NCBI GenBank assembly: GCA_002720975.1
Contig: PBIX01000040.1
Coordinates: 1-64,000 of the forward strand
DNA: 64,000 nucleotides
Direction of reading: 5' to 3'
DNA from: Planctomycetota bacterium
Lineage (GTDB): Bacteria > Planctomycetota > UBA1135 > GCA-002686595
Position 1 is the first letter of the stretch; each line of letters begins with the position of its first letter. Positions 1,594 through 22,371 of this stretch are shown here, piece after piece. The position numbers and the translations under genes are program-made. A model generated the notes under the pieces. The model was not told the origin of the DNA and searched no databases. It was given only the letters and a program-made list of their open reading frames with translations.

Positions 1594-3144
1594 TCAGCGG
1601 AAGTACACGCGACGGGTCACGGCGACTCCCCGACATGCGTGGCAGGGCACGATCTGCACAGAGGAGGACTGATTGCTCCCTCCCCCACCCGAATAGACCA
1701 TCTCCAGCGCCCCACGGCCCCCACAAGTGGAGCAAGACTTGAGGTAGGGGTGATCGCGCAGCTCGTAGTCCCCGGCGTACTCCACGTAGAAGGCCTTGAT
1801 CCAATTGGCACGCTTGCTGAGAGAGAAGGCGTCCCAGAAAACCTGGAACTCATCCTCTTGGGCAGCCCGGGCCTGTGCGCGACGGGCATTGCGCTGGTTC
1901 TTGAGGAAGCGCTGGATCTTGTCCTCCAGTGCCGCCCGCTCCTTGTCCTTGTCGGTCATGGCCTCGCGCTGGGCCGTGGCGTCCTCGGTACCCGCGCGGG
2001 CCTTGTCCTCCCCCAGCATCCAGGTGCCCTCGCCGTAGGTGGCGTTGCTGTAGCGCAGCATGCTGCGCGAGACCCAGTGGGCCACGATCTGATCCTCACT
2101 CGCATCGGAGTTGTACTGCTCCTGGACGTCGGTCAGCACGGCCTTGCGGATGGCCTCACCAAGCCCCTCTTCGGCGTAGGCCACGGCACCGGCGTAGTCC
2201 AGAGAACCAGCAGCCTGCCGGGTCAATCGCGAGAGCCAATAGCCCCAGCGCCTGCGCACGAAGTCGGTCACCTCCTCATCGCGCGCCAGCATGATCTGGC
2301 TCTCCTTTGCCTTGACCTCCAGTACCAGGGGGCTGTCCGGGAATGCGTTGCCGAACTCTGCCAGCTGCTCAAGCGCCTTCTCGTACTGCCCCTTCTTACG
2401 CAGCACGTCGACGCCGCGCAGGTAGTCGATCTGGGCTTGCTGCGCGGCCTTGACCTGGGCCAAAGCCACAGCCTTGACCAGCTCGGGGTGCTCTCCGGCC
2501 TCGTCGAGAGCCACCGCGGCCTGGAAGTGCTCCAGGGCATGCTGGAAATCGAGGAACTGCTCACAGGTGCGCGCCAGGTCAATCTGGCCCTGGAGGTCCG
2601 TCTCCCCCAGCTCGGCCGAGTGGCGCGCATACAGCTCCTCGCGGCTGTAGATATCCAGGGCCGGGGCCTGCCCCCCCTTGGAGATGCTCTGCACACGGCG
2701 CTTGGGTACCAGCTGCAGGTTGCCCTCCACCTGGACGACGAAGTCCGTGCCCTCCCGCGAGAGGATGACGCCCACGACCTCGTGCCCGTCCACCAGGATC
2801 AGGCGCTCCACCTCCACCATCAGCTCGTCCGTGGCCACGTCCACATAGCCCAGTTTCTCGCGCAGCTCCTGCTGTTGGCTGGGATCCAGCGCGGCCCAGG
2901 CAACGCTCGCCACCCCGCCGTGGGATAGAAGCGTGAAGCGGAAGCCGTCCGGGTCGTGATCGAGAATGTGGCCCCACCGGATCTGACCACTGCGCAGCTT
3001 CAGCATCAGCGCCGGTCGCATCTCCTCTTGAGGAGACGGCTCAGGCGTGAGACCGCCGGGGTCCTGTCCGGGAGTCTGGAGCGCGGAGGCACCGGCGCAG
3101 AGAAGCAGGGTGAGGGCGAGGGGCTTGAGGGTGTCGATCATCAC
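1594..3144 (-). CDS. Exported TPR-like protein with C-terminal CxxCxGxG zinc motif, in secretion operon
   Basis: A 516-residue protein of unknown function. It starts with a signal peptide (hydrophobic LKPLALTLLLCAGASALQ). Two small beta modules about residues 45-155 contain LKLRSGQIRWGHILD and VEVERLILVDGHEVVGVI, resembling SH3-like motifs common in planctomycete exported proteins. The middle (about 175-300) is helical and TPR-like (FQHALEHFQAAVALDEAGEH). The C terminus carries two DnaJ-like zinc half-sites, CSTCGGRG and CHACRG, separated by a Gly/Ser loop. Its ATG overlaps the GspI stop by 4 bp, so it is translated with the pseudopilins. The zinc motif suggests thiol or substrate handling, but no catalytic signature is visible. 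Confidence 0.7.
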   Translation of the reverse strand: MMIDTLKPLALTLLLCAGASALQTPGQDPGGLTPEPSPQEEMRPALMLKLRSGQIRWGHILDHDPDGFRFTLLSHGGVASVAWAALDPSQQQELREKLGYVDVATDELMVEVERLILVDGHEVVGVILSREGTDFVVQVEGNLQLVPKRRVQSISKGGQAPALDIYSREELYARHSAELGETDLQGQIDLARTCEQFLDFQHALEHFQAAVALDEAGEHPELVKAVALAQVKAAQQAQIDYLRGVDVLRKKGQYEKALEQLAEFGNAFPDSPLVLEVKAKESQIMLARDEEVTDFVRRRWGYWLSRLTRQAAGSLDYAGAVAYAEEGLGEAIRKAVLTDVQEQYNSDASEDQIVAHWVSRSMLRYSNATYGEGTWMLGEDKARAGTEDATAQREAMTDKDKERAALEDKIQRFLKNQRNARRAQARAAQEDEFQVFWDAFSLSKRANWIKAFYVEYAGDYELRDHPYLKSCSTCGGRGALEMVYSGGGGSNQSSSVQIVPCHACRGVAVTRRVYFR

Positions 3145-3665
3145 GGTCGGTCAGGGGTAGAGGACATGGCGGACTGGCCCTCCCCGCCTGGAGCCGTCTC
3201 CGGGGGCGGGGGGAATGAGCGGGCTTGGATGAAGCGCCGGCGCAGTCGCTCTCCAAAGGGTACTTCACGTAGCAACAGGGTGGTGAACTTGCGCGCGCGA
3301 CGCACTCCGGCGGCCTCCCAGAAGACCTCCACGTCCACGGCGAACTCGTCCGGGTCGTCGGGGTTGACCCGCGCCAGGGCCGAGTAGATCACGCCGGCAG
3401 CGCCGGGCACCGGGCGATCGACGATCACCCGTGGGTCCCCCACGCTGCCGTCCTCCTCCAGGGGGAAGAGGGACTCCTCCAGGTCAGCCACGACCGCCTC
3501 GATAGCCGTGGCCGCGGCCGTGCGCAGGGCGGCGGTGCGGGTCAGGGCTGCGCCGAAGGTGAACAGGCCCAGGAGTGAGGTCATGGCCATGACCAGCAAT
3601 CCCATGGCGAGGACAACCTCCAGGATGGTGAAGCCCGACTGGGTACGGGTGGTTGAAGCACTCAT
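3141..3665 (-). CDS. gspI: Type II secretion minor pseudopilin, GspI-like
   Basis: A 174-residue prepilin. The leader MSASTTRTQSG precedes the prepilin peptidase site G|FTILE, with the conserved Glu at position +5 of the mature protein, then a hydrophobic helix (VVLAMGLLVMAMTSLLGLF). The remainder is a small beta-rich head. Position in the operon between GspJ-like and the zinc protein, and the single N-terminal helix, fit GspI, one of the tip pseudopilins. The I versus H identity rests on gene order rather than on a family-specific motif. The start overlaps the GspJ stop as ATGA, indicating translational coupling. The C-terminal tail is Pro/Gly rich (PPPPETAPGGEGQ) and probably disordered. 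Confidence 0.75.
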   Translation of the reverse strand: MSASTTRTQSGFTILEVVLAMGLLVMAMTSLLGLFTFGAALTRTAALRTAAATAIEAVVADLEESLFPLEEDGSVGDPRVIVDRPVPGAAGVIYSALARVNPDDPDEFAVDVEVFWEAAGVRRARKFTTLLLREVPFGERLRRRFIQARSFPPPPETAPGGEGQSAMSSTPDRP

Positions 3666-4876
3666 CGACCACCTCCAAGCCTGTCCGAGGATGCAGGACG
3701 CCCCAGGTTCCAGTCGTCGCTGTGCATGGCCACGGGCACCTCAACGATGACGGTCTCGCCGAAGTGTACGCGCGCGCCGATCTCATGAGGCATCGCAGCG
3801 GTCCCGCGGGCAGCGCGTTTCACACTCACACGGTCGCCGCGCAGGTTCTGAACCTCCATCCACTCTCCATCGATGAGGATGTGGCGCCCCTTCTTGTAGG
3901 GCAGTCCGGCACCATCGCTCACCTCGAAGGAGGCCGTCTGTTTCTCGAGGGGTTCGAGCAGGGTCGGGCGCCTGCGGAGATCGGCAGGGCGCTCAAACTC
4001 CAGCTCAACGCGCACGCGGCGAGGGAGCAGCGGACTGCCCGACAGCGCCGGCATCCCGGCCCCGGCCATGTTCCAAGGGTGCGCCTCCCAGTCCGGAGAG
4101 AGAGGATCATCGCTGGATCGTTTCCAGGCATCCCAGGAAGCGCAGGAGTGCTCCAGCCCGCTGCCCAGGTTCCAGCCGTCCCAGATGATGCTCGTCTGGG
4201 TGGCGAACTGCAGACCCAACCAGAGAAGTCCTGCAGAGACCTCCTCCAGGGCACCCACCTTGGGACGACCCGATGAGGAGAAGAAGTCGGACTTGAAGAA
4301 TTTCCCGACGGAGCCCGGGGCCAGAAGGGCCTCACCGCGCATGAGCAGACCCTGTCCGCGAGAGAGGGCGTCGGTACCCACGGGCACCACGGCCCAGGCC
4401 ACCTCCATCAGCCCGCTCTGGATGGCCGGCGTGGGGCGCTGGTCCTCGGGAATAAGAGTCTCCACATCGACGCCCAGCTCCGCCGCTTGGGCCACAAGCG
4501 CGGGATCCACGCCGCGGGCCGACAGACGCACGACGTCCGCCATGGAGACCGACCGCACCAGACGCAGGCGCGGCCAAACACGATCCACGCGTCCGTCCTG
4601 GTCCACGTCGAAGTTGACCCAGTCCACGAGCAAGTCCCCTTGGGCGCCACTGTGCAAGGAGCGCAGGTCCTCAGCCAAGAGCTCCGCAGTCGCGGCCCCG
4701 CGCTCGACGATCAGACGCTGATCCTCTCCCCGGGTCCACATGTCGAGCGCCGTGTCGAGCAAGCGGAAGAGCGCCACCATCAGGACAGCGGCCAGACCTG
4801 CCGCCACCATCAGCTCCACCATGGTGAAGCCCCGGCGAGCAAGGGAGCCCTGAGGGTTCAGTCCGGGGCCTCTCAT
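3662..4876 (-). CDS. gspJ: Type II secretion minor pseudopilin, GspJ-like, with a C-terminal module shared with GspK
   Basis: A 404-residue prepilin, about twice the usual GspJ length. The leader ends at residue 16, and the cleavage site is G|FTMVEL with Glu at +5, followed by the helix MVAAGLAAVLMVALFRLLD. The head has the GspJ-like start in which a helix carries AATAELLAEDLRSL. Near residues 330-385 lies an added beta module (KKGRHILIDGEWMEVQN, then RGTAAMPHEIGARVHF) that recurs several times in the adjacent GspK. Start and stop overlap both neighbours by 4 bp (ATGA). It is expected in the inner-membrane-anchored pseudopilus tip with GspI and GspK. The extra module is probably surface exposed. 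Confidence 0.78.
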   Translation of the reverse strand: MRGPGLNPQGSLARRGFTMVELMVAAGLAAVLMVALFRLLDTALDMWTRGEDQRLIVERGAATAELLAEDLRSLHSGAQGDLLVDWVNFDVDQDGRVDRVWPRLRLVRSVSMADVVRLSARGVDPALVAQAAELGVDVETLIPEDQRPTPAIQSGLMEVAWAVVPVGTDALSRGQGLLMRGEALLAPGSVGKFFKSDFFSSSGRPKVGALEEVSAGLLWLGLQFATQTSIIWDGWNLGSGLEHSCASWDAWKRSSDDPLSPDWEAHPWNMAGAGMPALSGSPLLPRRVRVELEFERPADLRRRPTLLEPLEKQTASFEVSDGAGLPYKKGRHILIDGEWMEVQNLRGDRVSVKRAARGTAAMPHEIGARVHFGETVIVEVPVAMHSDDWNLGRPASSDRLGGGR

Positions 4877-7800
4877 TGCTCCACGCTCCTCAACACCAGG
4901 CCGGGTGCCTGATAGCTCACACCCAAGCGCTTGAAACGCGGGGTCTCCTTCCAGCCGTGTGAGAGGCCCGTCGTGGGGTCGAAAGCGCCCGGGTCATAGC
5001 GCACAAAAACACGCCAGTCGATGCGCTGGGACTGCACGCCTATGGGGAGGGACTCGTCTCCCTCCCGTCCCTGCAGCAGGAGCCGCAGGTCGCTCTCCTC
5101 TTCGGGGTCCGCGTCCCAGGGAACCGATGGGTCCGTGCGTTGCAATACCCCCAGGTGACACTGACCATGGGTGGCGGGCTCCGAGTCCCAGAAGGACTCC
5201 GACCACCAGGCACCGGGCTGCTCCAACTCGAAGCCGAAGTACGACATCTCGGGGGCATCGGCCTGCTCCGCCCAACGGTCCCAGTAGCGGAACGGGAAGC
5301 CAATCACGGTGGAACGCAGTGCGTGGGAGCTCGGCACGGTGCCATAGCGACCCCGGAACAGGCCCGCCCCGCCGCCGTCATCGCTACTGGATCTGGAGTC
5401 GGGATCGTCGGCGTCGTAGCCGGAGCGCGGCATCTCCAGCGAGCCGCGGCGCTGACGTGTGAAGTGGATCAACTCGTCACCGATCAGGACCGTGCCGGAA
5501 GTGCCGAAGCCGTTGGCACTCTCCAGGGGCAAGTTGGAGTCGGAGGGACCGATCCCTCCCGTCAGGGAGCTGACGGCCCAGCCTTCCATCAACGTAACCA
5601 CCTCCGAGGGTTGGTGAGGCTGGGGGTCGGTGCCCAGCAGGCCGCGACCGTCGGGGGCAATGACGAGGTCGCCGGTGTCCGCGTCCCGCTCGGTGTACGC
5701 CAGGATCTCATTCCCGATCCGCAAGAGGCCGCCATCGCTATCCAATGCCCCCAGCACCCCACGCGTGCCTCCCCAGCGACCGCCCGGAATCACGAACCCC
5801 GTGGGAGCCAGGCGCATCGTCTCACTGCTCTCGTCCATGGCCTCGGCCAGGATCATCTGCGCGCCAGCACTATGGGTTGGAGGGTTGGTGGCGGGCAAAC
5901 CCATCAGGAATCGCTGCGAGCCAAAAGCCACCTCGTCCACAACCGCCAAGGGAACCTCCCCATCTTGGGCGTCAAAGGTCGAACCAACGCTGACCGATGA
6001 GACCACGCGCGGCAGCTCGCCGGAGGGGAACTTGGTGATACGGGGCAGGAGGCGGGGGTCCGTGGTCCTCGTGCCGACAGTGGGCATGGCGATCGACTCG
6101 GGACAGGGCTTATCAAATGCCACGTAGATGCGCTGCACGTTGAACTGCGAGTGGTTGACCTCGAAGCTCTCGGGGGAGCTGGGAATGGCCACTTGCTCAC
6201 CGCTGGGATCGAAATCCCACCCGTATCCGGTGTACTCGGCGGCTGGCAGGTGCGCTCGCTCCACGACCATCGGCCACCCCAGGTGGTCCGGGTTGGCCCC
6301 GGAGACAAAGACCGCGTCCCCCGCACCGGGCCGGCCCCCGTCCACGCCCCGGTCAAGCAGGTGGAACACCGGCAGGACCTGTGTCCCCCCGGGGTGATCG
6401 TGGGAGTGGGTCCCCAGGACGCCGCGGAACTGGAAGGCCGAAGCGACGGCTCTCGACAGGTAGAACTCATCCAATTCGGACTCACCCCGCATGGGGTCCC
6501 AGTCCGACCCGGCCGTCGGGGTTGGGCCTGCGGACACCACGGGTGGACCGGTGGCAGGTGCATAGGTGCCACCACCACCACCGCCGCCGCCGCCGCCGGG
6601 TCCTTCCCCGCCATTGCCGTCAATGGTGCCACGCAAGTCATTCGCGACTCCGCCGGAGGTCAGGGTGAAGTAGAGGGCAGCCAGAGCCTGGTCTCGGTCG
6701 CGTACGAGCTGGCCATGGGCCGTGGCCAAGGTGTCGTAGCGCACCCACTCGGTGAACTCGGCCGCATCGGGGCGCGTGAGCTGGACGAACTCGGAGTTGT
6801 CCAGGGCGGGCAGATAGGTGAGGTCGTCGGCACCGGGGCAGGGAAGAGAAATGGGTACGCAGTAGCAGCCCATTCCCATTATGCCCTGCACCAGATCTCC
6901 CTCCGTGTTGGTCGTGCCCTCCCAGTCCACAACGAACACACGCACCCCACCGGCGAAGCCGGTGGGGTCCTGGTTGCCGTAGTTGGGCAGCTCACTCACC
7001 ACCACGTCCCCACGGGCCGAGACGTTGAGCACCGTACCGGTGTAGCCCGAGTAGCGAATGATCTCCAGTCCGCCCAGGGGCGCGTTGGGGGGAATGCCCG
7101 AGGTGCCCGTCTCATCAAAGGCCCACCTCTGCTGAACGAGGGCGGCGTAGCCTCCGGTCGGGTTGAAGGCAGTCATCACATCGGCTTCCGAGGCCTCACC
7201 GGTCGGGTCGTCCCCCAAGGCCAACATCAGACCGCTCATGTTGGTGGCCTCGTACCCGTCGCCGAAGTCGAAGAAGCCGCCGAGGATGGGATCGGGGCCC
7301 GTACCGGTAGAGGCGTCTACACCGACTACCCGCGCCACTCGGAAGGGGCCAATGGCCTCAGGTAATTGCGCAGCTCCTGCGGGCAGGTTGGAGGCCAGGG
7401 GTGTGGAGTAGCCGTAGAGGGAGACGCTGGCTCCGGCGGGGTGATCCGTGGTGATGGACCCCAGGTTGGCTGGCAGCTCCTCCACGCTCCAGCGCGTACG
7501 CGCCAACCGGCCTCCGCGGCCCGCATCCGGCCCCACCTCCACGTGGGTGGCTTCAAGCCCTCCGGATGAGAGCATGTACTCCACAAGTTCGTTGCCCACG
7601 CGCACCACGCCCTGGCTGGGGAAACCCTCGGTGTCTTCGAGGGCAAGGAACCCCGTACCCTGGCCGGCCCCTGCGCTCAGCTTCGACATCCCCGGACGTC
7701 GGACGCCCGAGGCGGAGCCGTTGACCATCATGCCCAGTTGATCTGGACGGGTACCGAGCACCTCCACGGAGATGTGGCTCCAGGTGTCCACCGGGAGACC

Positions 7801-9993
7801 CGGGCCCTCTCCTTCCGCCAGAGCCATGCGCGCCTCGGCCGCCTCCCGGAATCCGGGGGTGTCAACGTGATCACCAAAGCCGTCAAGAACGCGCAGCACC
7901 AGGTCCTCGCCCTCCATCAGGAGGCTGACCCGGTCCGACTCGCGGCTGGTCATGCCCACGTCCAGCAGATAGCCCTGCCCCAGTGAGGCGGGCTTGACCC
8001 ACAACTCAAAGAGGGCCGGATTCATCAAGCCACCCGCCTGCGCGTCCGCCCAGCCCACGCGCTTGTCGTTGATGGCAAACCCCAAGGTCTCGTCCGGCAG
8101 GTAGCGGCCTTCCAGGTCGCGGGTCTCCCGGTCGAAGTGCAGGGTGCGACCTCGATAGCGCCACTGTTCTTCGAGGCGGGAGGGCCACAGCTGCGCCCAG
8201 GCCTCGTCCTCGCGGGAGGCGAACACGTGCTCGCCGGGACCCGGCTCCGCGCTGTCGGAGTCATCACGGGTGAAGCCGGGCAGATACACACGGCCGTCCC
8301 GGGTGCCCATATGAGGCCACACGCGCGAGGGCGGTGTGGTGCCCCCGTCCCACTGAGAGGTGGCCTCCGGGCCCGTGGCCCACCAGGTGGCGCGGCGGGT
8401 CAGGCGCATGGACTCGTCGAAGGCATCCTGAGTGCCCCACAGAGTGAAGAGATCGCGCTGGGGCACGACCCACTCGACGCGCTCGCGCAAGGCATGGGTG
8501 CGCTCCAATCCACTCGGTGCATTGACCGAAGCACGCAGCTGCATGGAGTACACGTCCCGCGATGTGAAACACAGGGGCATGGTGGAGAAGGCCAGGGACG
8601 CATCGTTGGCGTTCAGACTGTTCACGTAGAGCGCCAGCGCGTCGACCGAAGAGATGGACGCACCTGCGGTGCCAACGAATTGGTCGGGGGCGGCCGGCGA
8701 ATCCGATGGCAGCTCTTCAATCCCCGCCGCGGGCAGGACGATGCGCCGCATCCAGTCCTCGAGCCCCTCGAAGGGGCGGCTCTGGATCGTCAGCTCCGCG
8801 AGGAGCTTGGCCTCGCTCGCAGTGATACGCGAGTTCTGCCCGCGCAGCTGCAGGTTCTCGAAGAGCGCACGCAGCACGAGCCTGGGCGCGGTGTTGACGT
8901 TCACCGGTCGGCGGGCCAGCACGCGCACCTCCGTCTCCCAAGCCAGGTAGTCCCGATCCAGAACCTCATTGAAGAGGATGCGCCCGTTGTTGCTGCGCGA
9001 CTGCACGTAGCGCAGCTCTCCCCCCTCTTTATCGCCGATCCAGATCGTCGCGCCCTCATTCAGGTAGCGTCCATCATCCACGGCCAGGGAGAGGGTCTCT
9101 CCACCCTCGATGGGAGTAATCAGACGCACGGACCTCTGCCAGGCACTGCCCGCGCAGACTCCCGCGTGGACGCTGCCCACCTCACCCAGTGCGTTGTAGG
9201 CGCCGTTTCCGACGCCCCCCACAATGGCGAAGCTGTCGGACTCTCGCAGCTGCTCGATGGTGTCGAACTCACGCAGCCGACCATCGGGTCCCGAGATGCG
9301 CCAGATCACGGGGGCGAACGAACGCTGGTCCATGGCGTGCGCCCCCACTGGGTGATCAGAGGGCGGACGTGGCCCATCGGTCATCCAATCGCCGTCATCG
9401 TTCTGGTGGGTGTTCACCCCTCGCACCCGAACCTCTATCTCGCCCTCTTCGTCGAGAACGTAGTGGATGATCTCGCCCTGGATGACGATGAACCCCTCAC
9501 GCTCACTGAACGTCGTGGCGTCGTTGAGGGCCAACCCGTCCGCGTCTCCCGCAAGCACGTCGGAGGTGCGAGTGATCATGCCCATGGCGCCGGCCAGCAA
9601 CTGGGGCGGTGCACTGTTCAGATCGATCAGCCCCGCCACGTCGCGCACGTCCAGGTCCCACATGGGGCCCGTCGCGTCGTTGGCCTTCAGGAAGTCCTCG
9701 TCAAAGATGTTGTCCACGGTCAACTCCTCCAGGGAGTCGGCCCAGGGCGAGAGGTCGGGCAAGCCCGCGTGAGAGGCTCCCAGCTGCCCGCGGGCGTGAC
9801 GCGCGGCGGAGTCCAGCAACAGCCGCGCCTCGGCCCGGTCGGCCAGATGTGCGCTGGCCCGATCCGCGTTGCGGGCGGCCAGCAGGAACGGAGCGCACAA
9901 CACGAGCAGCGAGAGGACCACGAGCAACACCGCCATCAGGGCGAAGCCCTCGCGTCCGCGGGCAGATCGGAGGATTGGTTTGAGGCCTCTCAT
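4873..9993 (-). CDS. gspK: Giant GspK-like tip pseudopilin with LamG-like domain and repeated beta modules
   Basis: A 1706-residue protein, roughly five times a normal GspK. Start chosen at ATG 9993, which overlaps the GspH stop by 4 bp and places the prepilin site G|FALMAVLL at residue 16. The in-frame extension to 10356 lies inside GspH. As in true GspK, the +5 Glu is absent. Two GspK-type helix-hairpin segments are present: LIDLNSAPPQLLAGAMG near 122 and PVNVNTAPRLVLRALFENL near 363. A LamG-like domain lies about 640-790 (FELWVKPASLGQGYLLDVGM). At least five copies of a beta module with the core hhIGxEhhxY occur near residues 170, 318, 800, 1427 and 1500. A poly-Gly linker near 1135 is encoded by a GCC/ACC-type triplet run. 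The architecture suggests a large adhesive or substrate-recognising tip on the pseudopilus. Confidence 0.8.
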   Translation of the reverse strand: MRGLKPILRSARGREGFALMAVLLVVLSLLVLCAPFLLAARNADRASAHLADRAEARLLLDSAARHARGQLGASHAGLPDLSPWADSLEELTVDNIFDEDFLKANDATGPMWDLDVRDVAGLIDLNSAPPQLLAGAMGMITRTSDVLAGDADGLALNDATTFSEREGFIVIQGEIIHYVLDEEGEIEVRVRGVNTHQNDDGDWMTDGPRPPSDHPVGAHAMDQRSFAPVIWRISGPDGRLREFDTIEQLRESDSFAIVGGVGNGAYNALGEVGSVHAGVCAGSAWQRSVRLITPIEGGETLSLAVDDGRYLNEGATIWIGDKEGGELRYVQSRSNNGRILFNEVLDRDYLAWETEVRVLARRPVNVNTAPRLVLRALFENLQLRGQNSRITASEAKLLAELTIQSRPFEGLEDWMRRIVLPAAGIEELPSDSPAAPDQFVGTAGASISSVDALALYVNSLNANDASLAFSTMPLCFTSRDVYSMQLRASVNAPSGLERTHALRERVEWVVPQRDLFTLWGTQDAFDESMRLTRRATWWATGPEATSQWDGGTTPPSRVWPHMGTRDGRVYLPGFTRDDSDSAEPGPGEHVFASREDEAWAQLWPSRLEEQWRYRGRTLHFDRETRDLEGRYLPDETLGFAINDKRVGWADAQAGGLMNPALFELWVKPASLGQGYLLDVGMTSRESDRVSLLMEGEDLVLRVLDGFGDHVDTPGFREAAEARMALAEGEGPGLPVDTWSHISVEVLGTRPDQLGMMVNGSASGVRRPGMSKLSAGAGQGTGFLALEDTEGFPSQGVVRVGNELVEYMLSSGGLEATHVEVGPDAGRGGRLARTRWSVEELPANLGSITTDHPAGASVSLYGYSTPLASNLPAGAAQLPEAIGPFRVARVVGVDASTGTGPDPILGGFFDFGDGYEATNMSGLMLALGDDPTGEASEADVMTAFNPTGGYAALVQQRWAFDETGTSGIPPNAPLGGLEIIRYSGYTGTVLNVSARGDVVVSELPNYGNQDPTGFAGGVRVFVVDWEGTTNTEGDLVQGIMGMGCYCVPISLPCPGADDLTYLPALDNSEFVQLTRPDAAEFTEWVRYDTLATAHGQLVRDRDQALAALYFTLTSGGVANDLRGTIDGNGGEGPGGGGGGGGGGTYAPATGPPVVSAGPTPTAGSDWDPMRGESELDEFYLSRAVASAFQFRGVLGTHSHDHPGGTQVLPVFHLLDRGVDGGRPGAGDAVFVSGANPDHLGWPMVVERAHLPAAEYTGYGWDFDPSGEQVAIPSSPESFEVNHSQFNVQRIYVAFDKPCPESIAMPTVGTRTTDPRLLPRITKFPSGELPRVVSSVSVGSTFDAQDGEVPLAVVDEVAFGSQRFLMGLPATNPPTHSAGAQMILAEAMDESSETMRLAPTGFVIPGGRWGGTRGVLGALDSDGGLLRIGNEILAYTERDADTGDLVIAPDGRGLLGTDPQPHQPSEVVTLMEGWAVSSLTGGIGPSDSNLPLESANGFGTSGTVLIGDELIHFTRQRRGSLEMPRSGYDADDPDSRSSSDDGGGAGLFRGRYGTVPSSHALRSTVIGFPFRYWDRWAEQADAPEMSYFGFELEQPGAWWSESFWDSEPATHGQCHLGVLQRTDPSVPWDADPEEESDLRLLLQGREGDESLPIGVQSQRIDWRVFVRYDPGAFDPTTGLSHGWKETPRFKRLGVSYQAPGLVLRSVEQ

Positions 9994-11039
9994 TCGACCG
10001 TCCCGTACACGTTGACCCGAATGATCTCCACGCCGCCCTCGCCGAAGTCGAGGCCCACCTCCACCGGCCGCAGATGAACCGTTGGATCCAAACCGCCACC
10101 GGCCATGAACTCCACGGAGGGGGGCGTCTTGGAAGTGAAATCCACCCCCAAGGGCAGCACCCCCTTCTCGCTGCCCACCACGACTGCCAAGACCAGCCTG
10201 TCTAGGATTCCCGAGGGCAGGGTGGTTCCACCGCCCACGAGCAGAGGCCCCTCCACGTTCCAGACGGGCACGTCGGAGGCGGTTGATGCCAGAGGAACGC
10301 CGTTGACCAGCAGGCGCAGGGTGCGCTTGTCGTACACACACCGCACGTGATTCCATTGATCGGGCCGCAGAGCCCCACCCCCAGCCTGCACACCGACCCT
10401 TCCCCCGCGTCGGGGTTGGCCCAGAGCGTCCACTTCGCGCCGATACAGGGTGGCCGAGAGTCCCCCGCCGGCGGTGGTCTGCAATTGGAAAGCATCACCG
10501 ATCTCGATCAGTTGGGCCCCCACCAGATGCTCGGGCTTGTAGCTGATCTCCAGACTGAACCCGTCAGTCAGGTCAAAGGCGGGATCGTCCTGCACGGGAA
10601 ACTCTGCCCGCGCACCGGCGGGTGCACCATCGAACGAGAGGCCTCGCCCCATGAACCCGTCGTCGTCCAGCAGGGAGCCACTCCCCAGGAAGACGCCGTC
10701 GATGCCATCGGAACCGCTGAGGGTCTCGTCCTCGAAGTGCCAGGTGCCCACCACGCGCATGCCCACGGTCAGGATCTCGCCGGTCTTGCGATCAAGGGTC
10801 ACGCGAGCGGGAGCCCCCAGGGCCACAGCTGTGTTGTGCGCGGTGCGCAGCAGGCTCGTCACCTGACCCAGAGCGGCGCGCCGACCGGGATCGAGGGTGG
10901 CAAAGGCACCCAGCCCCATGCCCATCATCACGGCGATCAGCCCCATCACGAGCATCAGCTCGATCAGGGTCATGCCCGCGTTGTAGCGGGCCGGACGCGG
11001 GGGACTAGTCCCGTTCAATCTCGAAGTTGGCGATGTCAT
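9990..11039 (-). CDS. gspH: Type II secretion minor pseudopilin, GspH-like, fused to a LamG-like domain
   Basis: A 349-residue prepilin. The ATG at 11039 overlaps the end of gspG by 35 bp and yields a 22-residue basic leader before the cleavage site G|MTLIEL with Glu at +5. A TTG at 11018 is the alternative start. The pilin helix MLVMGLIAVMMGMGLGAF is followed by a GspH-like strand LRTAHNTAVALGAPARVTLD. Residues about 105-290 then form a concanavalin/LamG-like domain: FDGAPAGARAEFP, FSLEISYKPEHLVG, QWNHVRCVYDKRTLRLLVNG. Such glycan-binding folds are not part of classical GspH. The gene overlaps gspK by 4 bp. The fusion hints that the pseudopilus tip contacts polysaccharide; that is inference. 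Confidence 0.75.
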   Translation of the reverse strand: MTSPTSRLNGTSPPRPARYNAGMTLIELMLVMGLIAVMMGMGLGAFATLDPGRRAALGQVTSLLRTAHNTAVALGAPARVTLDRKTGEILTVGMRVVGTWHFEDETLSGSDGIDGVFLGSGSLLDDDGFMGRGLSFDGAPAGARAEFPVQDDPAFDLTDGFSLEISYKPEHLVGAQLIEIGDAFQLQTTAGGGLSATLYRREVDALGQPRRGGRVGVQAGGGALRPDQWNHVRCVYDKRTLRLLVNGVPLASTASDVPVWNVEGPLLVGGGTTLPSGILDRLVLAVVVGSEKGVLPLGVDFTSKTPPSVEFMAGGGLDPTVHLRPVEVGLDFGEGGVEIIRVNVYGTVE

Positions 11040-11703
11040 CTGCGTTCCCGAAAATGCCGTCGGGGCCGGCGGAGATGATCTGGAAGCTGGACTTGCGATG
11101 GGGGTCTCCGGTCTTACGGGAGACTCGTCCCTTGACCGGGCCCTCGATGTCCAGACCCACCTCGTCATAGGTGAGGTAGTGGATCTCCTTCTCGTAGTCC
11201 CGACGGTGGATGTAGGCCAGGGGATTCCCCCAAAGGTCGATCAACTCGAAGGCGTCGGGGCTGCTGAAGCGCGTCAGAGTGGTCTTGGTGCTGTCTCCGT
11301 CCGTGTTGCCCAGGGCATCCTCACCTATCTCTGCGGCCTGCCACGGACGGCCTTGCCTCCACAGGCTGATGACCAGCATCTCCACGCCCATGTTGATGCG
11401 GTTGGGCTTGGGATCGAGGCTGGCCGGAAAGGTCGAGGGGGGGAAGCGTTCGAACTCGTTGTAGTACTCCTGCACCAGCCCGCCGATGGTCTGGATCAGA
11501 GCCTTCGTGTTGCCCACCTCCACACTGATCTGGGCACTGCGCACGGAGCGCACCAGGAAGGTCACCAGGATGGACAGGATCAGGAGCACCGCCAGGAGTT
11601 CGATCAGGGTGAAGCCACCCTGGGTCCCGTTCTGCTCGGCGACCGCGGAGGACGACCCGGAGTCACGGGCGAGGAGGGCTCGAAGGGACTTGGAGATTCT
11701 CAT
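11005..11703 (-). CDS. gspG: Type II secretion major pseudopilin, GspG-like
   Basis: A 232-residue pseudopilin, longer than the usual ~145. A 30-residue leader ends in GG before G|FTLIELLAVLLILSILVTF, with Glu at +5. The globular head holds GspG hallmarks: a helix with NTKALIQTIGGLVQEYYNEF, the FPPS turn, the segment ELIDLWGNPLAYIH, and a calcium-site-like C-terminal loop SAGPDGIFGNADDI. It would polymerise into the periplasmic pseudopilus that pushes substrates through the outer-membrane secretin. The secretin, ATPase and GspF genes are not in this window. It is the first pseudopilin gene of the operon, 15 bp after the TPR gene. Confidence 0.85.
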   Translation of the reverse strand: MRISKSLRALLARDSGSSSAVAEQNGTQGGFTLIELLAVLLILSILVTFLVRSVRSAQISVEVGNTKALIQTIGGLVQEYYNEFERFPPSTFPASLDPKPNRINMGVEMLVISLWRQGRPWQAAEIGEDALGNTDGDSTKTTLTRFSSPDAFELIDLWGNPLAYIHRRDYEKEIHYLTYDEVGLDIEGPVKGRVSRKTGDPHRKSSFQIISAGPDGIFGNADDIANFEIERD

Positions 11704-11718: not shown

Positions 11719-14412
11719 CTAGAGCCGCCGCCGTACGACGCCTACGTGGTCCACGGACACCGAAGCTCGGCGGCCGGCACGGCCCTCCACGAAGATGCCA
11801 AAGCGTAGCGGCTGGCTGGAACGGCCTAAGGTGGGCAGTGCCAGGTTTTCGATCACGGGGACGTCATCCACCCAGAGGGTGACGGTGGTGTCCGAAGAGG
11901 TCTCCCCGCGCTTTTCAATACCCACGCGCATGGGCTCCCCCACGTTCCATTGGGCGGTGTACAGGTCCTGCGCCGCCGCGTCCAACTCGCCCTTCTTGGT
12001 CAGGGTCGCGCGCACGGCACCATCCCAGTGACGCACGAGCTCCACGGCGGCATGGGTTCGGATGTCTCCGGTACGGCCCTCGGTCTCGCGCGCCACAAAG
12101 ATGCCCACGGTCACGTCCCGCGAATCGGGGTGAACGGTGAGCTCGGCCTCCAGGGAGAGCAGACGGTCCGCGGGAAGCTCCCGGTACAGCCGGGTCCGGC
12201 TCTCCTTGGTGAGCTGTCCCTCGATCCACACGGCTCCGTCCCGCAGGCGCACCTCCGCGCCGTAGCCCTGGTCGTAGGTCCAGCCGTTGCCCACACGCCC
12301 CACGCGGTCGAAACGATCCCGCCAGAACTCCTTGCTCTCGTGGTCGCGAATGCGAGCGCTCTGGGTCTCGGCGTATTGACTGGGTGCATCGCCCTCGGCT
12401 TCGTTGCGGCGGATATCCACCAGCTCGGCGAAGCTGGCCTGGGCCTGCCCCGAGTCTCCGCTGAGGTACTGCCACCAGGCCATTCCGTTGCGCGCCGAGG
12501 CCATATCGGGGTTGAGAGTCAACGCCGCACCGAAAGCGGCCTCAGCCTTGCCCAATTCTCCCAGCACCAAGAAGTTCAGGCCGCGGCGCGCGTGCACGAC
12601 CGGGCGTGCAGGATCGATGCTGAGGGCCCGCTCAAAATAGCGCTCGGCCGAATCCGGATCGCCCCCCTCGCTGGCCAGGGCGCCCATAGCCACCAGCGCA
12701 TCGGGGAAGTCCAACTCCTGATCGAGAGCGGCGCGGAAGCTCGACATGGCTTCGTCGTCTTCATCACGCTGCGTCTGCAGACGCCCGCGCTGATAGAGGG
12801 TCCACGTGTCTTCCGGGTTGGCCGCGTGGGCCATCTCGATGTAGGTCCAAGCCTCCTCCGGATGGCCCGTGATCTCAGCCACCCAGCTCAAGCTGCGCCA
12901 GCAGAGCCACCCCCGGAAAGGATCGACAGCGGCGGCCTGGCGCAGAGAGCGCACGGCCTCTCCATCCTCCTGGGCCTGCAGTGCAGCCAGCCCACGGGCG
13001 AAGAGCAGATCAAAGCTGGCATCCGGGCCGTCGCCAGCCTCCTCCTCCAGTCCCTCGCTCTCACCCAAAAGGACCGCTGCGGCCAAGACCCCCGCGGGAC
13101 CCAGGTCCGCTTCGGGATCGGCGCTGGCCCCGCGCTCAAATGCGTCGCGTGCCGCCTGCACCTCGCCCCGAGCCATCAGCACGCGACCGAAGTCCGTGCG
13201 GATGCCCACACGCTCGGCGCGCAGATCAGGGCCCGTGGGCTCTCGCTTCTGGGCCTCGTTCAAGTGCTCATAGGCCTCGTCGTATTGACCGGCATCCAGG
13301 AGAAACCGTCCGTAGAGCCAGCGTACAAGCCAGTCCGTGCGCGAACGGCGGAGGCCCTCGTCAAAGGCCTGCTGAGCCGGACCACGCATGCGGAAGCGGG
13401 CGTACAGATCCCCCAGCCGGGCCCACGGTTCAGGCTCCGTGTGCAGGTCGCCTTCAGTCAGGCCCGCATAGACGTCCAGGGCAGCCTGGAAGTCAAAGCC
13501 CAATTCATGGCACCGGGCCAAACCCAGATGGGGACGCACATCGGTGGGCTGCAACCGGACGCACATGCCATACAGGTCCTCAGCCGCTTCCAGAGCACGC
13601 GGGGTCTCGTTGCGCAGCTCAAGACACTCCCCGGCAAAACGCATGGCCCCGTCATAATCTCCCGGGCGCAAGTCCGACCCGAAGGCGGCGCGGCCCAGCT
13701 CCACCCTATTCGTTGGCGTATCGGCAAAGCCGAACTCCTGCACGCGCTCGGCCTCATAAGCCACGGCTTGCTGACCGGAAAAGCGCTCCTTGCCGGTGCT
13801 GGGATCAATCTCAAGGAACAAGATGGCCTCGCCACTGCCCCTCAGCCCAAAGCGCTCCTTGTTCTCGATGCGGCCGAACTTCAGGTTGGCCACCACGATC
13901 CAGTCGTAGAGCTTCTTGCGCGCTTCAATGCGGGCGAGGCGCTCGTCGACGGTGAGGTCGGCGTCCGACGCTCCGCTCACCGTCGTAACCTCTTCCGAGC
14001 CTCCGCTGCTGATGGGCGCAGGCTCCATGGACGATGCATTGAACAGGCCCTGGGCCGATCGGGTCGGGATCCGGGTGCGAAGGTGCTTGCCCATGTGCTT
14101 GGCGGCGGGGCCGTACGCGCTGGGGGGGGCCAGAGCGGGCAGAGGCTCAAGCGGAGGTAAGATCAACTCCAGTAGCGGCAGGGGAGTGGTGTCCCGTGGA
14201 GGCGAGAAGAGGTCGCGCTGGAGGGTCCCGCTACGACTCGCGGTCGGCAAGGCCAGGCCACTGTCGGGCACAGCGGCCTGTGAGTAGCTCTTGGCGGCAC
14301 CAGAGGCTCCACCGCGGAGGTCCACAGCCCCATCGGAGATCAAGCCGTAGGCACTCCAGCCCAGGAGGCCTGCTACGGCAAGGAAGACGCCTGTCTCTTT
14401 TTTCATTTCCAT
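11719..14412 (-). CDS. Membrane-anchored TPR protein with C-terminal jelly-roll-like domain in the secretion operon
   Basis: An 897-residue protein with one N-terminal membrane helix (TGVFLAVAGLLGWSAYGLI, about residues 7-25). A proline-rich segment RDLFSPPRDTTPLPLLELI resembles the PilP/GspC-type linker, and a conserved patch RFGLRGSGEAILFLEIDP follows. From about residue 260 to 660 there are repeated TPR motifs, for example FPDALVAMGALASEGGDPDS and RYFERALSIDPARPVVHARR. The last 200 residues form a beta-rich LamG/3-keto-disaccharide-hydrolase-like fold (DRFDRVGRVGNGWTYDQGYG). It lies between pilO and gspG. I read it as the GspC/PilP-position assembly factor enlarged by TPR and binding domains; the C-terminal binding role is a guess. 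Confidence 0.65.
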   Translation of the reverse strand: MEMKKETGVFLAVAGLLGWSAYGLISDGAVDLRGGASGAAKSYSQAAVPDSGLALPTASRSGTLQRDLFSPPRDTTPLPLLELILPPLEPLPALAPPSAYGPAAKHMGKHLRTRIPTRSAQGLFNASSMEPAPISSGGSEEVTTVSGASDADLTVDERLARIEARKKLYDWIVVANLKFGRIENKERFGLRGSGEAILFLEIDPSTGKERFSGQQAVAYEAERVQEFGFADTPTNRVELGRAAFGSDLRPGDYDGAMRFAGECLELRNETPRALEAAEDLYGMCVRLQPTDVRPHLGLARCHELGFDFQAALDVYAGLTEGDLHTEPEPWARLGDLYARFRMRGPAQQAFDEGLRRSRTDWLVRWLYGRFLLDAGQYDEAYEHLNEAQKREPTGPDLRAERVGIRTDFGRVLMARGEVQAARDAFERGASADPEADLGPAGVLAAAVLLGESEGLEEEAGDGPDASFDLLFARGLAALQAQEDGEAVRSLRQAAAVDPFRGWLCWRSLSWVAEITGHPEEAWTYIEMAHAANPEDTWTLYQRGRLQTQRDEDDEAMSSFRAALDQELDFPDALVAMGALASEGGDPDSAERYFERALSIDPARPVVHARRGLNFLVLGELGKAEAAFGAALTLNPDMASARNGMAWWQYLSGDSGQAQASFAELVDIRRNEAEGDAPSQYAETQSARIRDHESKEFWRDRFDRVGRVGNGWTYDQGYGAEVRLRDGAVWIEGQLTKESRTRLYRELPADRLLSLEAELTVHPDSRDVTVGIFVARETEGRTGDIRTHAAVELVRHWDGAVRATLTKKGELDAAAQDLYTAQWNVGEPMRVGIEKRGETSSDTTVTLWVDDVPVIENLALPTLGRSSQPLRFGIFVEGRAGRRASVSVDHVGVVRRRL

Positions 14413-15226: not shown

Positions 15227-16924
15227 CTAGTACTCCTCCCCTTCGGCATCACCCTCGCCGTCGTCGGCAGCGGGCGGCGGCGGACCGAATAGACATAGAT
15301 CCAGGGAGAACTGATCCCTATCGATGGACTCTTTCATGCGGCCACCGCTCTTGCCATCCCCCACGAGAGCCTCGCGCAGAGCACGCGTCATCTCCTGGAA
15401 CTGGCGGCTGGGAGAGTCGGTACCGGGCCGTATCATCCCGCGCACCATGAGCATCGGCCGCTCGGAGTTGCGCTCCACTCCCAGCTCGGGGTCGAACGTC
15501 CACTCACTGGTGAGCTCCGAGACCCAGAAGTCGCCGGGCAGGGAGTTGTCGAGCTGGCTCATCGCACGCGCGCCCTGTTCACCCAGACCCGCCACCCACT
15601 GAAGCTGTGAGGCAAGCACCCGCAGGGACTCGTTCTCCTCGATCAGCTGCTCGGCCTCGCGATGTATCCGGGTCTCCCGAGAGAGGCGGGACTGTAGCCC
15701 GGCGTTCTCGCTGTTGACCCTGTCAAGCTCATCGGCGAGGTGGACCGTCTTGAAGCCCAGGTAGCACACGGCCAGCAGCGCGGCGGCAATGAGCCAGATG
15801 GTCTCGCCCCAGAAGGCTCGCTTCTTGGCAAGGCTGGCGGGCAGGATCTCCAGACTGTAGGCCCCGGAATCGGAGCCCATGGTGGCCAGCCCCAGGGCCA
15901 CGACCGCCTCCAGCTTGAACTCTTCAAGCAGATCCGCACTGGCTGCATCCAGCTTGTCGGTCTCCACCATGCGGAAGGCGTCGAAGAGCTCCACGGTCAC
16001 GCCCATGCCCCCCGAAATGTACTGAGGCAGGCCGTCCAGGGCTGCGCCGCCCCCGCAGAGCATGACGCGATCCACCTTCAGGCCGCTGATCTTGACCTGG
16101 CTCTTGCAGAACAGGATGGCCGACTGAAGCAGGGAGAGGATCTGACCTGCGGCGCCCATGATGGCGCGGCTGGCCTTCTCGTGATTGGGGGTCGGGTGCG
16201 CGGCTCCGGAGCGCAAGCTTGCATACTTCAGCTTGAGCTTCTCGGCTTGTGCGGGGCCCACGTTGAAGCGCTGGGCCAGGGCCTGGTCGAAGAGCCGGCT
16301 GCCTCCGGAGAGATTGCGCGCGAACAGGAGGTCCGGCCCCCGGGCAATGACCACGTCGATGTTGTCGTGCCCGATGTTGGCCAAGAGAACGGTCTCATCC
16401 TCCACCACACCGAAGTGGGTCCAGGCGTTGTACAGGGCGATGGCGCTGGGGCTGAAGCTGTCCAGGTTCCCACCCGTCAGGTCCAGGCCCTCAAGGTGAT
16501 CGTCCAAGAGACCCTCGCGGGCCATGGCCAGCAGGACCACGTCCTCCCCCTCCACCTCGGGGAGCTCGGGCAGGAGGTTGAAGTCACTCGCCACCTCGGT
16601 GCCGGACTGATCACCAATCTCGGACACCTCAAACCGCATCAGGTTGCGTAGCTGCCAGTCGGGCACCCGCGGCACGCGGGTGTAGCGCACGTTGACATCG
16701 CGCCCGGTCAGCCCCACCCGTGCCGCCACGGGTTTGAAGCCCTGGGCCAGCTCCTCCCAACCGCTCAACAACCAGCTGGTATCCCCTTCAGTCGCACTGG
16801 AGCCCAGGGAGGGATTGCCACGGGCATTGAAGTCCGTGACATGGAAGGTGTTCCCCTTGTACTGACCGCACAGGGCAATGGCCGAACTGGCACCTACGTC
16901 GATACCTGTGGAGGTGCGCGCCAT
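15227..16924 (-). CDS. PilM-PilN fusion (GspL-like) secretion platform protein
   Basis: A 565-residue protein. Residues 1-345 form the actin-like PilM/GspL cytoplasmic domain: STGIDVGASSAIALCG at the start, LLANIGHDNIDVVIARG in the middle, and VDRVMLCGGGAALDGLPQYI, the phosphate-2-like glycine loop. A membrane helix follows near 368-388 (WLIAAALLAVCYLGF), then a coiled coil (residues 395-430) and a PilN-type periplasmic ferredoxin-like domain. A single chain therefore does the job of separate PilM and PilN, as in GspL. Its start overlaps the last base of the FHA gene and its stop lies 2 bp from pilO. The C-terminal tail is Pro/acid rich (GPPPPAADDGEGDAEGEEY). Confidence 0.8.
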   Translation of the reverse strand: MARTSTGIDVGASSAIALCGQYKGNTFHVTDFNARGNPSLGSSATEGDTSWLLSGWEELAQGFKPVAARVGLTGRDVNVRYTRVPRVPDWQLRNLMRFEVSEIGDQSGTEVASDFNLLPELPEVEGEDVVLLAMAREGLLDDHLEGLDLTGGNLDSFSPSAIALYNAWTHFGVVEDETVLLANIGHDNIDVVIARGPDLLFARNLSGGSRLFDQALAQRFNVGPAQAEKLKLKYASLRSGAAHPTPNHEKASRAIMGAAGQILSLLQSAILFCKSQVKISGLKVDRVMLCGGGAALDGLPQYISGGMGVTVELFDAFRMVETDKLDAASADLLEEFKLEAVVALGLATMGSDSGAYSLEILPASLAKKRAFWGETIWLIAAALLAVCYLGFKTVHLADELDRVNSENAGLQSRLSRETRIHREAEQLIEENESLRVLASQLQWVAGLGEQGARAMSQLDNSLPGDFWVSELTSEWTFDPELGVERNSERPMLMVRGMIRPGTDSPSRQFQEMTRALREALVGDGKSGGRMKESIDRDQFSLDLCLFGPPPPAADDGEGDAEGEEY

Positions 16925-19017: not shown

Positions 19018-19145
19018 GGGCGGCGGAGGGGAACGAATCGACTCCCACCGCCAGGCACCCCTGGGGGGCATGCTGACCGTGGAGGGCTGGGGAGATTGTG
19101 GAGTGGGGTCGGGCGTGGGGCCTATCCCCATCGGAGCGCCCAGTA

Positions 19146-19200
19146 ACCCTCCCCGTGCCCATGGAAAGGGCAATGGGAACGCATCGGGCGCGGGGAGGGT
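19146..19200. repeat. Inverted repeat between radC and the secretion operon
   Basis: Perfect 10-bp arms ACCCTCCCCG (19146-19155) and CGGGGAGGGT (19191-19200), with a second small dyad TGCCC/GGGCA nested at 19156-19172. The structure lies in the 251-bp gap upstream of the FHA gene and downstream of radC on the minus strand. No T-run follows on either strand, so it is not a standard terminator. It could be an attenuator, a rho-dependent stop aid or a protein site. Confidence 0.5.
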
Positions 19201-19268
19201 AGCGCAGAGTCGGGGCCCCGCAAAGGGACCTTTGGCCCTGGTTCTCCCTGCCCTGGCCCCCGGGCGGT

Positions 19269-19880
19269 TCAGAATCCCATGGATTCTCGCAATGAGACCC
19301 AACTCCCATGCCCCAAGACCACGTGATCCAGCAGGGGCACCCCCACCAGGCGGCCCACCTCCAGGAGTCGCCGGGTCACCTCTTTGTCCTCTGAGCTGGG
19401 CTCTGGGTCCCCTGAAGGGTGGTTGTGCGCCACGATCAGCGCCGCAGCACCACGCCTCAGGGCAGGAGCAAAGACTTCCCGGGGATGGACCAGGGAGGAG
19501 GTCAGGGTACCCAGGCTGACAATCTGCTGACCCTTCAGACGGTGCCTGGGATCCAAAAAAAGAGCGTGGAAGCTCTCCTGTTGCTCCCCGCGCAGTTCGG
19601 GCGCCAAGAGGCGGTAGACCGCCTCCGGCCGGGCGAGGTGGGGGCAAGGGTCCGGCCGATCCCGCTCGACCCAGCGACCCAGGGCAAAGGCCGCTTCCAG
19701 GCGTCCGGCCTGGCAAGGGGTCAAGGCATGCCCCTGGGTGAGTTCCTCCGGTGAAAGGCGAGAGAGACCGTGCAGACCATATGTGGTGAGCAACTCCCCA
19801 GCCGAATCCTCCCCCACGGCTCTACCTCCCAAGAGTCTGGTGAGGAGGGTCTTGGGCTCCGGGTCACGGGAAACAATCAC
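19269..19880 (-). CDS. radC: RadC-family JAB/MPN-domain protein
   Basis: A 203-residue RadC (UPF0758) protein, close to the usual ~225. The start is GTG 19880 (GTG ATT GTT); the longer frame to 20156 runs antisense through the small membrane peptide gene. The N-terminal helix-hairpin region covers residues 10-75 (LLTRLLGGRAVGEDSAGELL). The JAB metal site is intact: HNHPSGDPEPSSED near residues 150-163, with the upstream FHALFLDPRHRL strand. Despite the name, the family's role in DNA repair is unproven; the metal centre suggests a hydrolase. It is transcribed toward the secretion operon but separated by 251 bp. A 7-bp inverted repeat GATTCCC/GGGAATC at 19928-19977 lies in its upstream region and may be regulatory. 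Confidence 0.85.
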   Translation of the reverse strand: MIVSRDPEPKTLLTRLLGGRAVGEDSAGELLTTYGLHGLSRLSPEELTQGHALTPCQAGRLEAAFALGRWVERDRPDPCPHLARPEAVYRLLAPELRGEQQESFHALFLDPRHRLKGQQIVSLGTLTSSLVHPREVFAPALRRGAAALIVAHNHPSGDPEPSSEDKEVTRRLLEVGRLVGVPLLDHVVLGHGSWVSLRESMGF

Positions 19881-20047
19881 ACCCGGATAGACGCTTCTCC
19901 AGCCGTAATGGTGTCCGAGGGGACGCCGATTCCCAGAAACGGGAAGTCCTGGATTTACCTTTCGGATTCCGGGAATCAAATTTGGATATGCGGCCGAACT
20001 GGATTGGTGCGGGTCATTCGGCCTGCGAACGAAGCGAAGGAGGAAAC

Positions 20048-20185: not shown

Positions 20186-20236
20186 GCCTAAGGGTCGAAG
20201 GGGGGGCCTCCCCCACATTGGACGGGAGAGGCTGAC

Positions 20237-20284
20237 GAGCAGCCGCGCTTAGAGCACAGGCTCAAGGCGGCTGCTCTCTTTTGT
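20237..20284 (+). terminator. Intrinsic terminator after the small membrane peptide gene
   Basis: Perfect 10-bp stem GAGCAGCCGC (20237-20246) with GCGGCTGCTC (20267-20276), followed by the T-rich tail TCTTTTGT. The 20-nt loop contains a second perfect 4-bp hairpin (GAGC/GCTC, 20252-20263). It terminates the plus-strand peptide gene and sits just past the stop of the convergent peptidase gene. Confidence 0.85.
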
Positions 20285-20320
20285 CCCGACCCCCAGCCGG
20301 GCTCGGCCCGCCGAACCCCC

Positions 20321-22365: not shown

Positions 22366-22371
22366 CTCAGC

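What the first reader, a model, noticed from the sequence alone, without database searches (positions are those of the whole stretch)
3770..9993. A repeated beta module spreads across GspJ and the giant GspK
Seen: GspK has at least five segments with the core hhIGxEhhxY and, in several, a later RG..GT...H..G..V pattern (for example VVRVGNELVEYM, LLRIGNEILAYT, TVLIGDELIHFT, FIVIQGEIIHYV). The neighbouring GspJ ends with the same module (HILIDGEWMEVQN, RGTAAMPHEIGARV). The module resembles ones seen in phage-tail and surface proteins. Known: GspI-J-K form the pseudopilus tip. Inferred: repeated modules line a very large tip (GspK 1706 residues versus about 330 in E. coli), possibly to bind substrate proteins or glycans.
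Basis: partly seen in the sequence, partly recalled or inferred. Interest (0 to 1): 0.6.

Follow-up and report, generated by a model that had tools for sequence, protein, structure and literature searches.

The report
Phage-tail barrels on giant secretion tip
Planctomycete bacteria appear to build the tip of their type II secretion piston from an oversized protein studded with the same small barrel-shaped module that phages use to brace the tips of their tails, a combination we did not find described.

Summary
The repeat is real. GspK (9993-4873, 1706 aa) and GspJ (4876-3662, 404 aa) share a ~70-90 residue module. Four strong copies lie in GspK and one in GspJ (profile E 2e-12 to 6e-21). A fifth GspK copy (residues 283-360) is clear by predicted structure, and two more look split and degenerate. 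The module is a six-stranded beta-barrel. It matches tail-hub/tip proteins of phages by profile-profile comparison (98.3%, E 2.6e-14) and by predicted fold (copy 2: Z 12.6, 1.6 A over 73 residues, to a phage tail tube). In phage JBD30 the matching domain braces the baseplate. GspK also holds a GspK-type core and a laminin-G domain; GspH holds a second one. The giant GspK is found in 59 of 61 related genomes, and the module in 204 of 294 Planctomycetota genomes sampled, mostly in giant GspK-like and GspJ-like frames; in the window's own genome, nowhere else. Binding of substrates or glycans by the barrels is not supported: bracing is likelier, with the laminin-G domains as better ligand candidates. 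Modular pilins are known; barrel-studded GspK/GspJ as a phylum-wide design is a new variant.

The parts
4873..9993 (-). Giant GspK-like minor pseudopilin, 1706 aa
   Evidence: Open frame; NF037980 T2SS_GspK matches 18 of 18 orthologs, best 1.2e-11, window copy 1e-5 but below the curated cut-off; T2SSK Pfam 16 of 18
8554..9993 (-). GspK core: pilin-type N-terminal helix and the two helix-hairpin parts (DLNSAP ~123, PVNVNTAP ~364)
   Evidence: Alignment of 42 orthologs; T2SSK at residues 364-382; helices in model
9328..9576 (-). Barrel module 1 (GspK 140-222), inserted in the GspK core
   Evidence: hmmsearch iE 2e-12; hhalign 99.7% (against a family that includes it); model pLDDT ~86
8914..9147 (-). 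Barrel module 2 (GspK 283-360), divergent
   Evidence: VIA-align Z 12.6, 1.6 A, 73 aligned to phage tail tube 9n71_A 103-178; hhalign only 43%
7693..8049 (-). Laminin-G domain (GspK ~649-767)
   Evidence: Z 9.8 to agrin G2 3pve_B over residues 659-767; Laminin_G_3 in 7 of 18 orthologs, best 2.1e-6, window copy not matched
7408..7692 (-). Barrel module 3 (GspK 768-862)
   Evidence: iE 6.5e-19; invariant G800 and E802 in 18 orthologs
6925..7077 (-). Possible degenerate module 4 (GspK ~973-1023)
   Evidence: hhalign 83.3% over about 21 residues; three strands in model
6364..6792 (-). Possible module 5 split by a disordered glycine-rich insertion (GspK ~1068-1210)
   Evidence: hhalign 90.4% for the RG..GT...H half, 67.3% for the E half; strands 1068-1073 and 1081-1086
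5578..5865 (-). Barrel module 6 (GspK 1377-1472)
   Evidence: iE 4.7e-17; invariant E1429, R1450, G1454, H1460 in 18 orthologs
5284..5580 (-). Barrel module 7 (GspK 1472-1570), in tandem with module 6
   Evidence: iE 2.7e-20; Z 9.5, 9.0 and 8.5 to 9in6_M, 8jov_1 and 9n71_A
4909..5247 (-). C-terminal beta-sandwich of GspK (1583-1695), fold uncertain
   Evidence: Z 6.8 to a GOLD domain, below the level that means much
3662..4876 (-). GspJ-like minor pseudopilin, 404 aa
   Evidence: N_methyl 5.1e-5; gspJ TIGR01711 in 6 of 20 orthologs, best 5.8e-4; TIGR02599 in 10 of 20
3755..3976 (-). Barrel module at the C-terminal end of GspJ (301-374)
   Evidence: iE 6.3e-21; GspJ profile finds phage Chi minor tail protein 8vjh_A at 1e-4 through positions 314-354
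10227..10583 (-). Laminin-G domain of GspH (196-314)
   Evidence: PF13385 1.7e-8
9990..11168 (-). GspH-like minor pseudopilin
   Evidence: TIGR01708 gspH 2e-5
11005..11703 (-). GspG-like major pseudopilin
   Evidence: TIGR01710 gspG 1.9e-7
3141..3665 (-). GspI-like minor pseudopilin
   Evidence: NF047828 XpsI 2e-8, TIGR02598 1.8e-6
15227..16924 (-). PilM-like assembly protein of the same strand and cluster
   Evidence: PilM_2 2.9e-14

Best explanation
GspK and GspJ are minor pseudopilins of a Planctomycetota type II secretion-type filament that carry copies of a six-stranded beta-barrel module shared with phage tail-hub proteins. Shown here by computation: the copies are homologous, they share the phage barrel fold where it could be tested, they sit in a GspK-type and a GspJ-type pilin inside a conserved pseudopilin cluster, and the arrangement is widespread in the phylum. 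Inferred: GspK, GspI, GspJ and GspH cap the filament as in other T2SS; the barrels are rigid brace or spacer domains that hold a very large tip together (two of them split the GspK helical core, one caps GspJ), as the matching barrel does in a phage baseplate hub; and the laminin-G domains of GspK and GspH, not the barrels, touch cargo or surface glycans.
For: Repeat: 27 module-module pairs at 90% or more of 992 window pairs; of 23 control windows of GspK 21 gave 1.2% or less, the other two overlap copies 5 and 6. Phage link: A5 against seven phage tail modules 98.3%, E 2.6e-14; those phage modules find solved 8vjh_A at 1.7e-22 and 8rk3_o at 2.5e-12; PHROGs hits for 10 of 23 module sequences to one virion family (best 1.4e-8) and 10 of 23 to a tail family. 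Fold: copy 2 Z 12.6 and copy 7 Z 8.5 to the same phage domain 9n71_A from residue 103. Host protein: 18 of 18 orthologs match T2SS_GspK, 16 of 18 T2SSK. Spread: 59 of 61 genomes of relatives, the window's own included, 204 of 294 phylum genomes. Role: JBD30 domain VI, a small six-stranded barrel, is said to stabilise the baseplate (PMC11445458, passages). E. coli pseudopilins show no module (best iE 1.5).
Against: The window's GspK is far below the NCBIfam equivalog cut-off (25.3 of 130 bits) and its Pfam score is below cut-off in the protein scan (18.7 of 24.2). GspJ's own family match is weak (0.018). No complex was modelled, so the tip place is by analogy. The bracing role is carried over from one phage. 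Copies 1, 3 and 6 were not matched structurally on their own, because copy 2, laminin-G and copy 7 filled the lists. The phage modules compared had been picked by their weak similarity to GspJ's module.
Confidence: 0.6

Rival explanations
1. The barrels themselves bind secreted substrates or glycans at the tip, so that copy number gives avidity.
For: Related barrels sit in tailspikes and tail tips that face the host; T2SS tip complexes are said to recognise substrates (PMC6211770, passage); modular pilins commonly carry binding domains (PMC8179133, passages).
Against: Conserved residues are the same few in every copy (glutamate, RG, histidine), as a fold signature would be; the matching JBD30 domain is called stabilising; the same proteins carry laminin-G domains that suit binding better.
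Confidence: 0.2
2. The proteins belong to an extended adhesive or motility pilus rather than a secretion piston; the giant GspK-like protein is a surface-displayed tip adhesin.
For: PilM-like gene in the cluster; laminin-G in GspK and GspH; modular pilins known as adhesins.
Against: Family matches are to GspG, GspH, XpsI and GspK; secretins exist in the genome (5 matches) but on other contigs than the window's, so the machine type is not settled.
Confidence: 0.2
3. Convergent motif: small beta-barrels with a common turn pattern, not homologous with phage domains.
For: The fold is common: V/F1-ATPase N-terminal barrels score Z ~7.5 against copy 2; single-sequence similarity to phages is weak (best E 3e-3; none for module 3).
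Against: Profile-profile E 2.6e-14 over 69 of 79 columns, and phage matches stand above the ATPase barrels (12.6 against 7.6).
Confidence: 0.1

Closest known systems
GspK/XcpX and GspJ/XcpW of type II secretion (E. coli, Pseudomonas)
   Same: Pilin N-terminus, helix-hairpin GspK core, gene set G-H-I-J-K
   Different: GspK 327 and GspJ 195 aa in E. coli, without barrel modules; here 1706 and 404 aa; gene order here G-H-K-J-I
Siphophage baseplate hub / tail-tip proteins (JBD30 gp53 domain VI, phage Chi minor tail protein, lambda gpJ); Pfam Rcc01698_C (GTA)
   Same: Six-stranded barrel module with a D.E...RG...H signature; Rcc01698_C matches 4 of 21 orthologs, best 1e-6
   Different: In the phage proteins read here one copy, or two, per hub protein; here up to seven in a pilin
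Modular type IV pilins (S. sanguinis PilB/PilC; PMC8179133)
   Same: Functional domains grafted on a pilin, laminin-G/ConA type among them
   Different: The barrel array is not in the passages read; the most extreme case named there has 860 residues
Verru_Chthon cassette proteins A-D (TIGR02600, 02598, 02599, 02596)
   Same: GspJ orthologs match protein C in 10 of 20 (best 3.9e-8), GspI matches protein B at 1.8e-6; protein A is a 1296-position model
   Different: GspK's own match to A is only its N-terminus at E 0.088; barrels in protein A not tested

Membership tests
GspK (T2SS minor pseudopilin) | Prepilin-like N-terminus | tested here: met
   Glycine plus hydrophobic helix conserved in the 42 aligned orthologs; by inspection, no Pfam N_methyl hit for GspK
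GspK (T2SS minor pseudopilin) | T2SSK helical domain | tested here: met
   16 of 18 orthologs by Pfam, 18 of 18 by NCBIfam; the window's copy is under the curated cut-off in the protein scans and over it in the genome search (25.1 of 24.2 bits)
GspK (T2SS minor pseudopilin) | Forms the I-J-K tip complex | not testable with these tools
   No complex prediction available
GspJ | Match to a GspJ family model | tested here: inconclusive
   TIGR01711 in 6 of 20 orthologs, best 5.8e-4; window copy 0.018
Phage tail-hub six-stranded barrel | Sequence profile similarity | tested here: met
   98.3%, E 2.6e-14
Phage tail-hub six-stranded barrel | Same fold | tested here: met
   Copies 2 and 7, Z 12.6 and 8.5-9.5; copies 1, 3 and 6 show similar strand order only
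Rcc01698_C (PF23666) | Match to the Pfam model | tested here: inconclusive
   Window GspK and GspJ: no match at E <= 1; 4 of 21 C-terminal orthologs, best 1e-6; own genome none at 1e-3
Modular pilin | Pilin N-terminus fused to a domain not specific to pili | tested here: met
   GspJ: N_methyl 5.1e-5 plus barrel; GspH: N_methyl 3.8e-5 plus laminin-G 1.7e-8
Type II secretion system | Secretin present in the genome | tested here: met
   5 matches, best 1.1e-40, none on the window's contig; which secretin serves it is unknown

The most novel reading that the evidence does not exclude
Early in Planctomycetota a phage tail-hub barrel was captured into the minor pseudopilins and multiplied, so that the pseudopilus tip is now built like a phage baseplate hub: a large, braced, multi-barrel cap that reaches through or past the secretin. 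In another lineage the same barrels moved into a PilO-like inner-membrane component instead.
Probability: 0.2. Interest if true: 0.75.

Novelty: new variant of a known kind. Interest (0 to 1): 0.55.

Why it matters
The tip of the type II pseudopilus is thought to select and push cargo, yet how it adapts to different cargo is open. Much of a phylum appears to have enlarged the tip protein about fivefold with barrel domains otherwise used to brace phage tail tips. That gives clean domain boundaries for expression and deletion tests, names a domain that Pfam does not recognise in these GspK-like proteins, and links pilus and phage-tail construction at the level of one small fold.

Tried and rejected
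Chance or low-complexity repeat: rejected by shuffles and by control windows. A second GspK in the genome (C43:69235): the frame reads, by eye, as a Tex/S1-type RNA-binding protein with helix-hairpins, not a pilin. Direct PDB search with GspK: only antibody linkers matching the glycine-rich stretch and one weak enzyme row; with the GspK 1-880 alignment: no hit at E 1. tblastn of module 3 in phages: none. Foldseek on GspK 765-1706: no confident whole-model match, best E 0.05; its JBD30 hub row in VIA-align has rmsd 33.5 A and was not used. Pfam Rcc01698_C as the domain's name: too few matches. A control in another phylum with the module profile could not be run; E. coli pseudopilins alone served as negative control, so absence of barrels from GspK of other phyla is not shown. 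Literature: searches listed no paper on barrel modules in planctomycete GspK/GspJ; the held library lacks most subscription papers, and only the passages named were read.
Full report
What was checked. GspK is 9993-4873 on the minus strand (1706 aa), GspJ 4876-3662 (404 aa). The strict core motif occurs four times in GspK and once in GspJ; shuffled proteins gave a mean of 0.012 and a maximum of 1 in 5000 trials, and no other frame of 100 aa or more in the window holds it.

The repeat without the motif. GspK orthologs were taken from related genomes (59 of 61 have a match, the window's own included; 42 long ones aligned). Windows of 100 residues from GspK, GspJ and GspH alignments were compared all against all (992 pairs). 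Of 29 pairs at 90% or more, 27 join module to module (GspK 140-221, 770-860, 1377-1470, 1470-1569, GspJ 303-372) and two are the common pilin N-terminus. These E-values are per comparison. Against the profile of all five strong modules (which includes them), copies 1, 3, 6 and 7 score 99.4-99.7%; copy 2 43%, copy 4 83%, copy 5 77% (its halves 67% and 90%); 21 of 23 control windows score 1.2% or less, and the other two (52%, 19%) overlap copies 5 and 6. Among 18 orthologs across the order, module residues G800, E802, E1429, R1450, G1454, H1460, E1507, R1547, G1548 and G1551 are invariant.

What the module is. Module sequences match phage families: of 23 sequences, 10 hit a virion structural family (best 1.4e-8), 10 a tail protein family (5.9e-6), 6 a baseplate wedge family (6.8e-8). 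Modules were read from eight phage tail or virion loci with a profile; seven of them, aligned as A6 (one near-duplicate left out), match the GspK/GspJ profile at 98.3%, E 2.6e-14. The phage profile finds the solved Chi minor tail protein (8vjh_A, 1.7e-22) and the JBD30 protein 8rk3_o residues 495-557 (2.5e-12). The GspJ profile itself finds 8vjh_A at 1e-4. These phages had been found by a weak tblastn match to GspJ's module, so they are not an independent draw.

Structure. Two models were made with 18 and 21 sequences: GspK 1-880 (mean pLDDT 65.7) and GspK 765-1706 (70.7). Copy 2 matches phage tail tube 9n71_A at Z 12.6 (1.6 A, 73 residues), tailspike 4ru4 11.7, JBD30 8rk3_D and Chi 8vjh_B 10.7, lambda gpJ 7.7, and V-ATPase barrels about 7.6. 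Copy 7 matches 9in6_M 9.5, 8jov_1 9.0 and the same 9n71_A domain 8.5. Foldseek alone gave no PDB hit at 1e-3; in the viral library 14 reached it, among them a baseplate wedge initiator, though several of those spread over long stretches with large rmsd. The JBD30 paper calls the hub's domain VI a small six-stranded beta-barrel that stabilises the baseplate (PMC11445458, passages). That residues 495-557 are this domain VI is my inference from its order in the chain.

The host proteins. GspK orthologs match T2SS_GspK in 18 of 18 (best 1.2e-11) and T2SSK in 16 of 18. The window's copy is weaker. Barrels 1 and 2 lie between the two helix-hairpin parts (residues ~123 and ~364), so they split the GspK core (inference). 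A laminin-G domain follows (Z 9.8 to agrin; Pfam in 7 of 18 orthologs). GspH carries another (1.7e-8). GspJ is a pilin (5.1e-5) with a barrel near its C-terminal end.

Neighbourhood. The cluster TPR protein, GspG, GspH, GspK, GspJ, GspI and a further protein recurs across the order, with single genes unmatched in some loci. E. coli GspG/H/I/J/K are 145/169/125/195/327 aa against 232/392/174/404/1706 here, and show no module.

Spread. In the window's own genome the module occurs only in GspK and GspJ (one further row at E 0.34). In 294 Planctomycetota genomes it occurs in 204 (108 of 177 that are at least 90% complete and at most 5% contaminated). In twenty regions that I chose from the best rows, 16 hold a frame of 950 aa or more with three or more modules, and 15 hold a separate shorter frame with exactly one. 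Exceptions there: a giant non-pilin frame (L132), an Ig-domain protein (L136) and an unclear case (L129). In six complete or nearly complete genomes of one family (G082, G105, G123, G220, G268, G309) the module, one or two copies, sits in a 633-661 aa frame; for the one scanned (L140) Pfam gives PilO at E 0.033 and an Ig domain. Named relatives are Planctomycetota, among them Pla86, Pla163 and Poly30.

Mechanism. Tip complexes of minor pseudopilins are said to recognise substrates and cap the pseudopilus (PMC6211770, passages). I think the planctomycete cap is an enlarged one in which barrels act as braces and spacers and laminin-G domains as contact sites. The tip place, the bracing and the contact role are inferences.

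Known or new. Pilins with grafted domains are well known (PMC8179133, passages), with more than 1,200 listed there and GspK itself named as modular. The phage barrel is known. I found no paper joining the two in the searches named.

Noticed in passing
L138, L140-L142, L145, L147 (genomes G220, G105, G268, G123, G309, G082): In one Planctomycetota family the barrel module (one or two copies) sits in a 633-661 aa frame; for L140 Pfam gives weak PilO (0.033) and a He_PIG Ig domain (3.2e-10), suggesting barrels in an inner-membrane assembly component.
   Followed up: partly
L132 (G177:C88): Two modules in a giant frame (8478 aa) that has no pilin-like start in the part read.
   Followed up: no
L127 and L134 (G291, G163): Two neighbouring giant frames, each with four or five modules, next to one GspJ-like frame: perhaps a duplicated giant GspK.
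   Followed up: no
window 3141-4876: GspJ orthologs match Verru_Chthon cassette protein C (10 of 20, best 3.9e-8) and GspI matches protein B (1.8e-6): the Verru_Chthon A-D cassettes look like the same minor-pseudopilin set.
   Followed up: partly
window 11719-14412: TPR protein next to GspG whose last ~200 residues look, by eye, like a laminin-G/ConA-type domain; Pfam reports only TPR and unrelated weak rows.
   Followed up: no
G000:C43:68191-71193: A T2SSK family match there is, by eye, a Tex/S1-type protein with helix-hairpins: a false GspK.
   Followed up: yes
window 16924-23448: Upstream of the PilM-like gene on the same strand lie an FHA-domain protein (930 aa) and a protein kinase (358 aa), possibly regulators of the cluster.
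   Followed up: no
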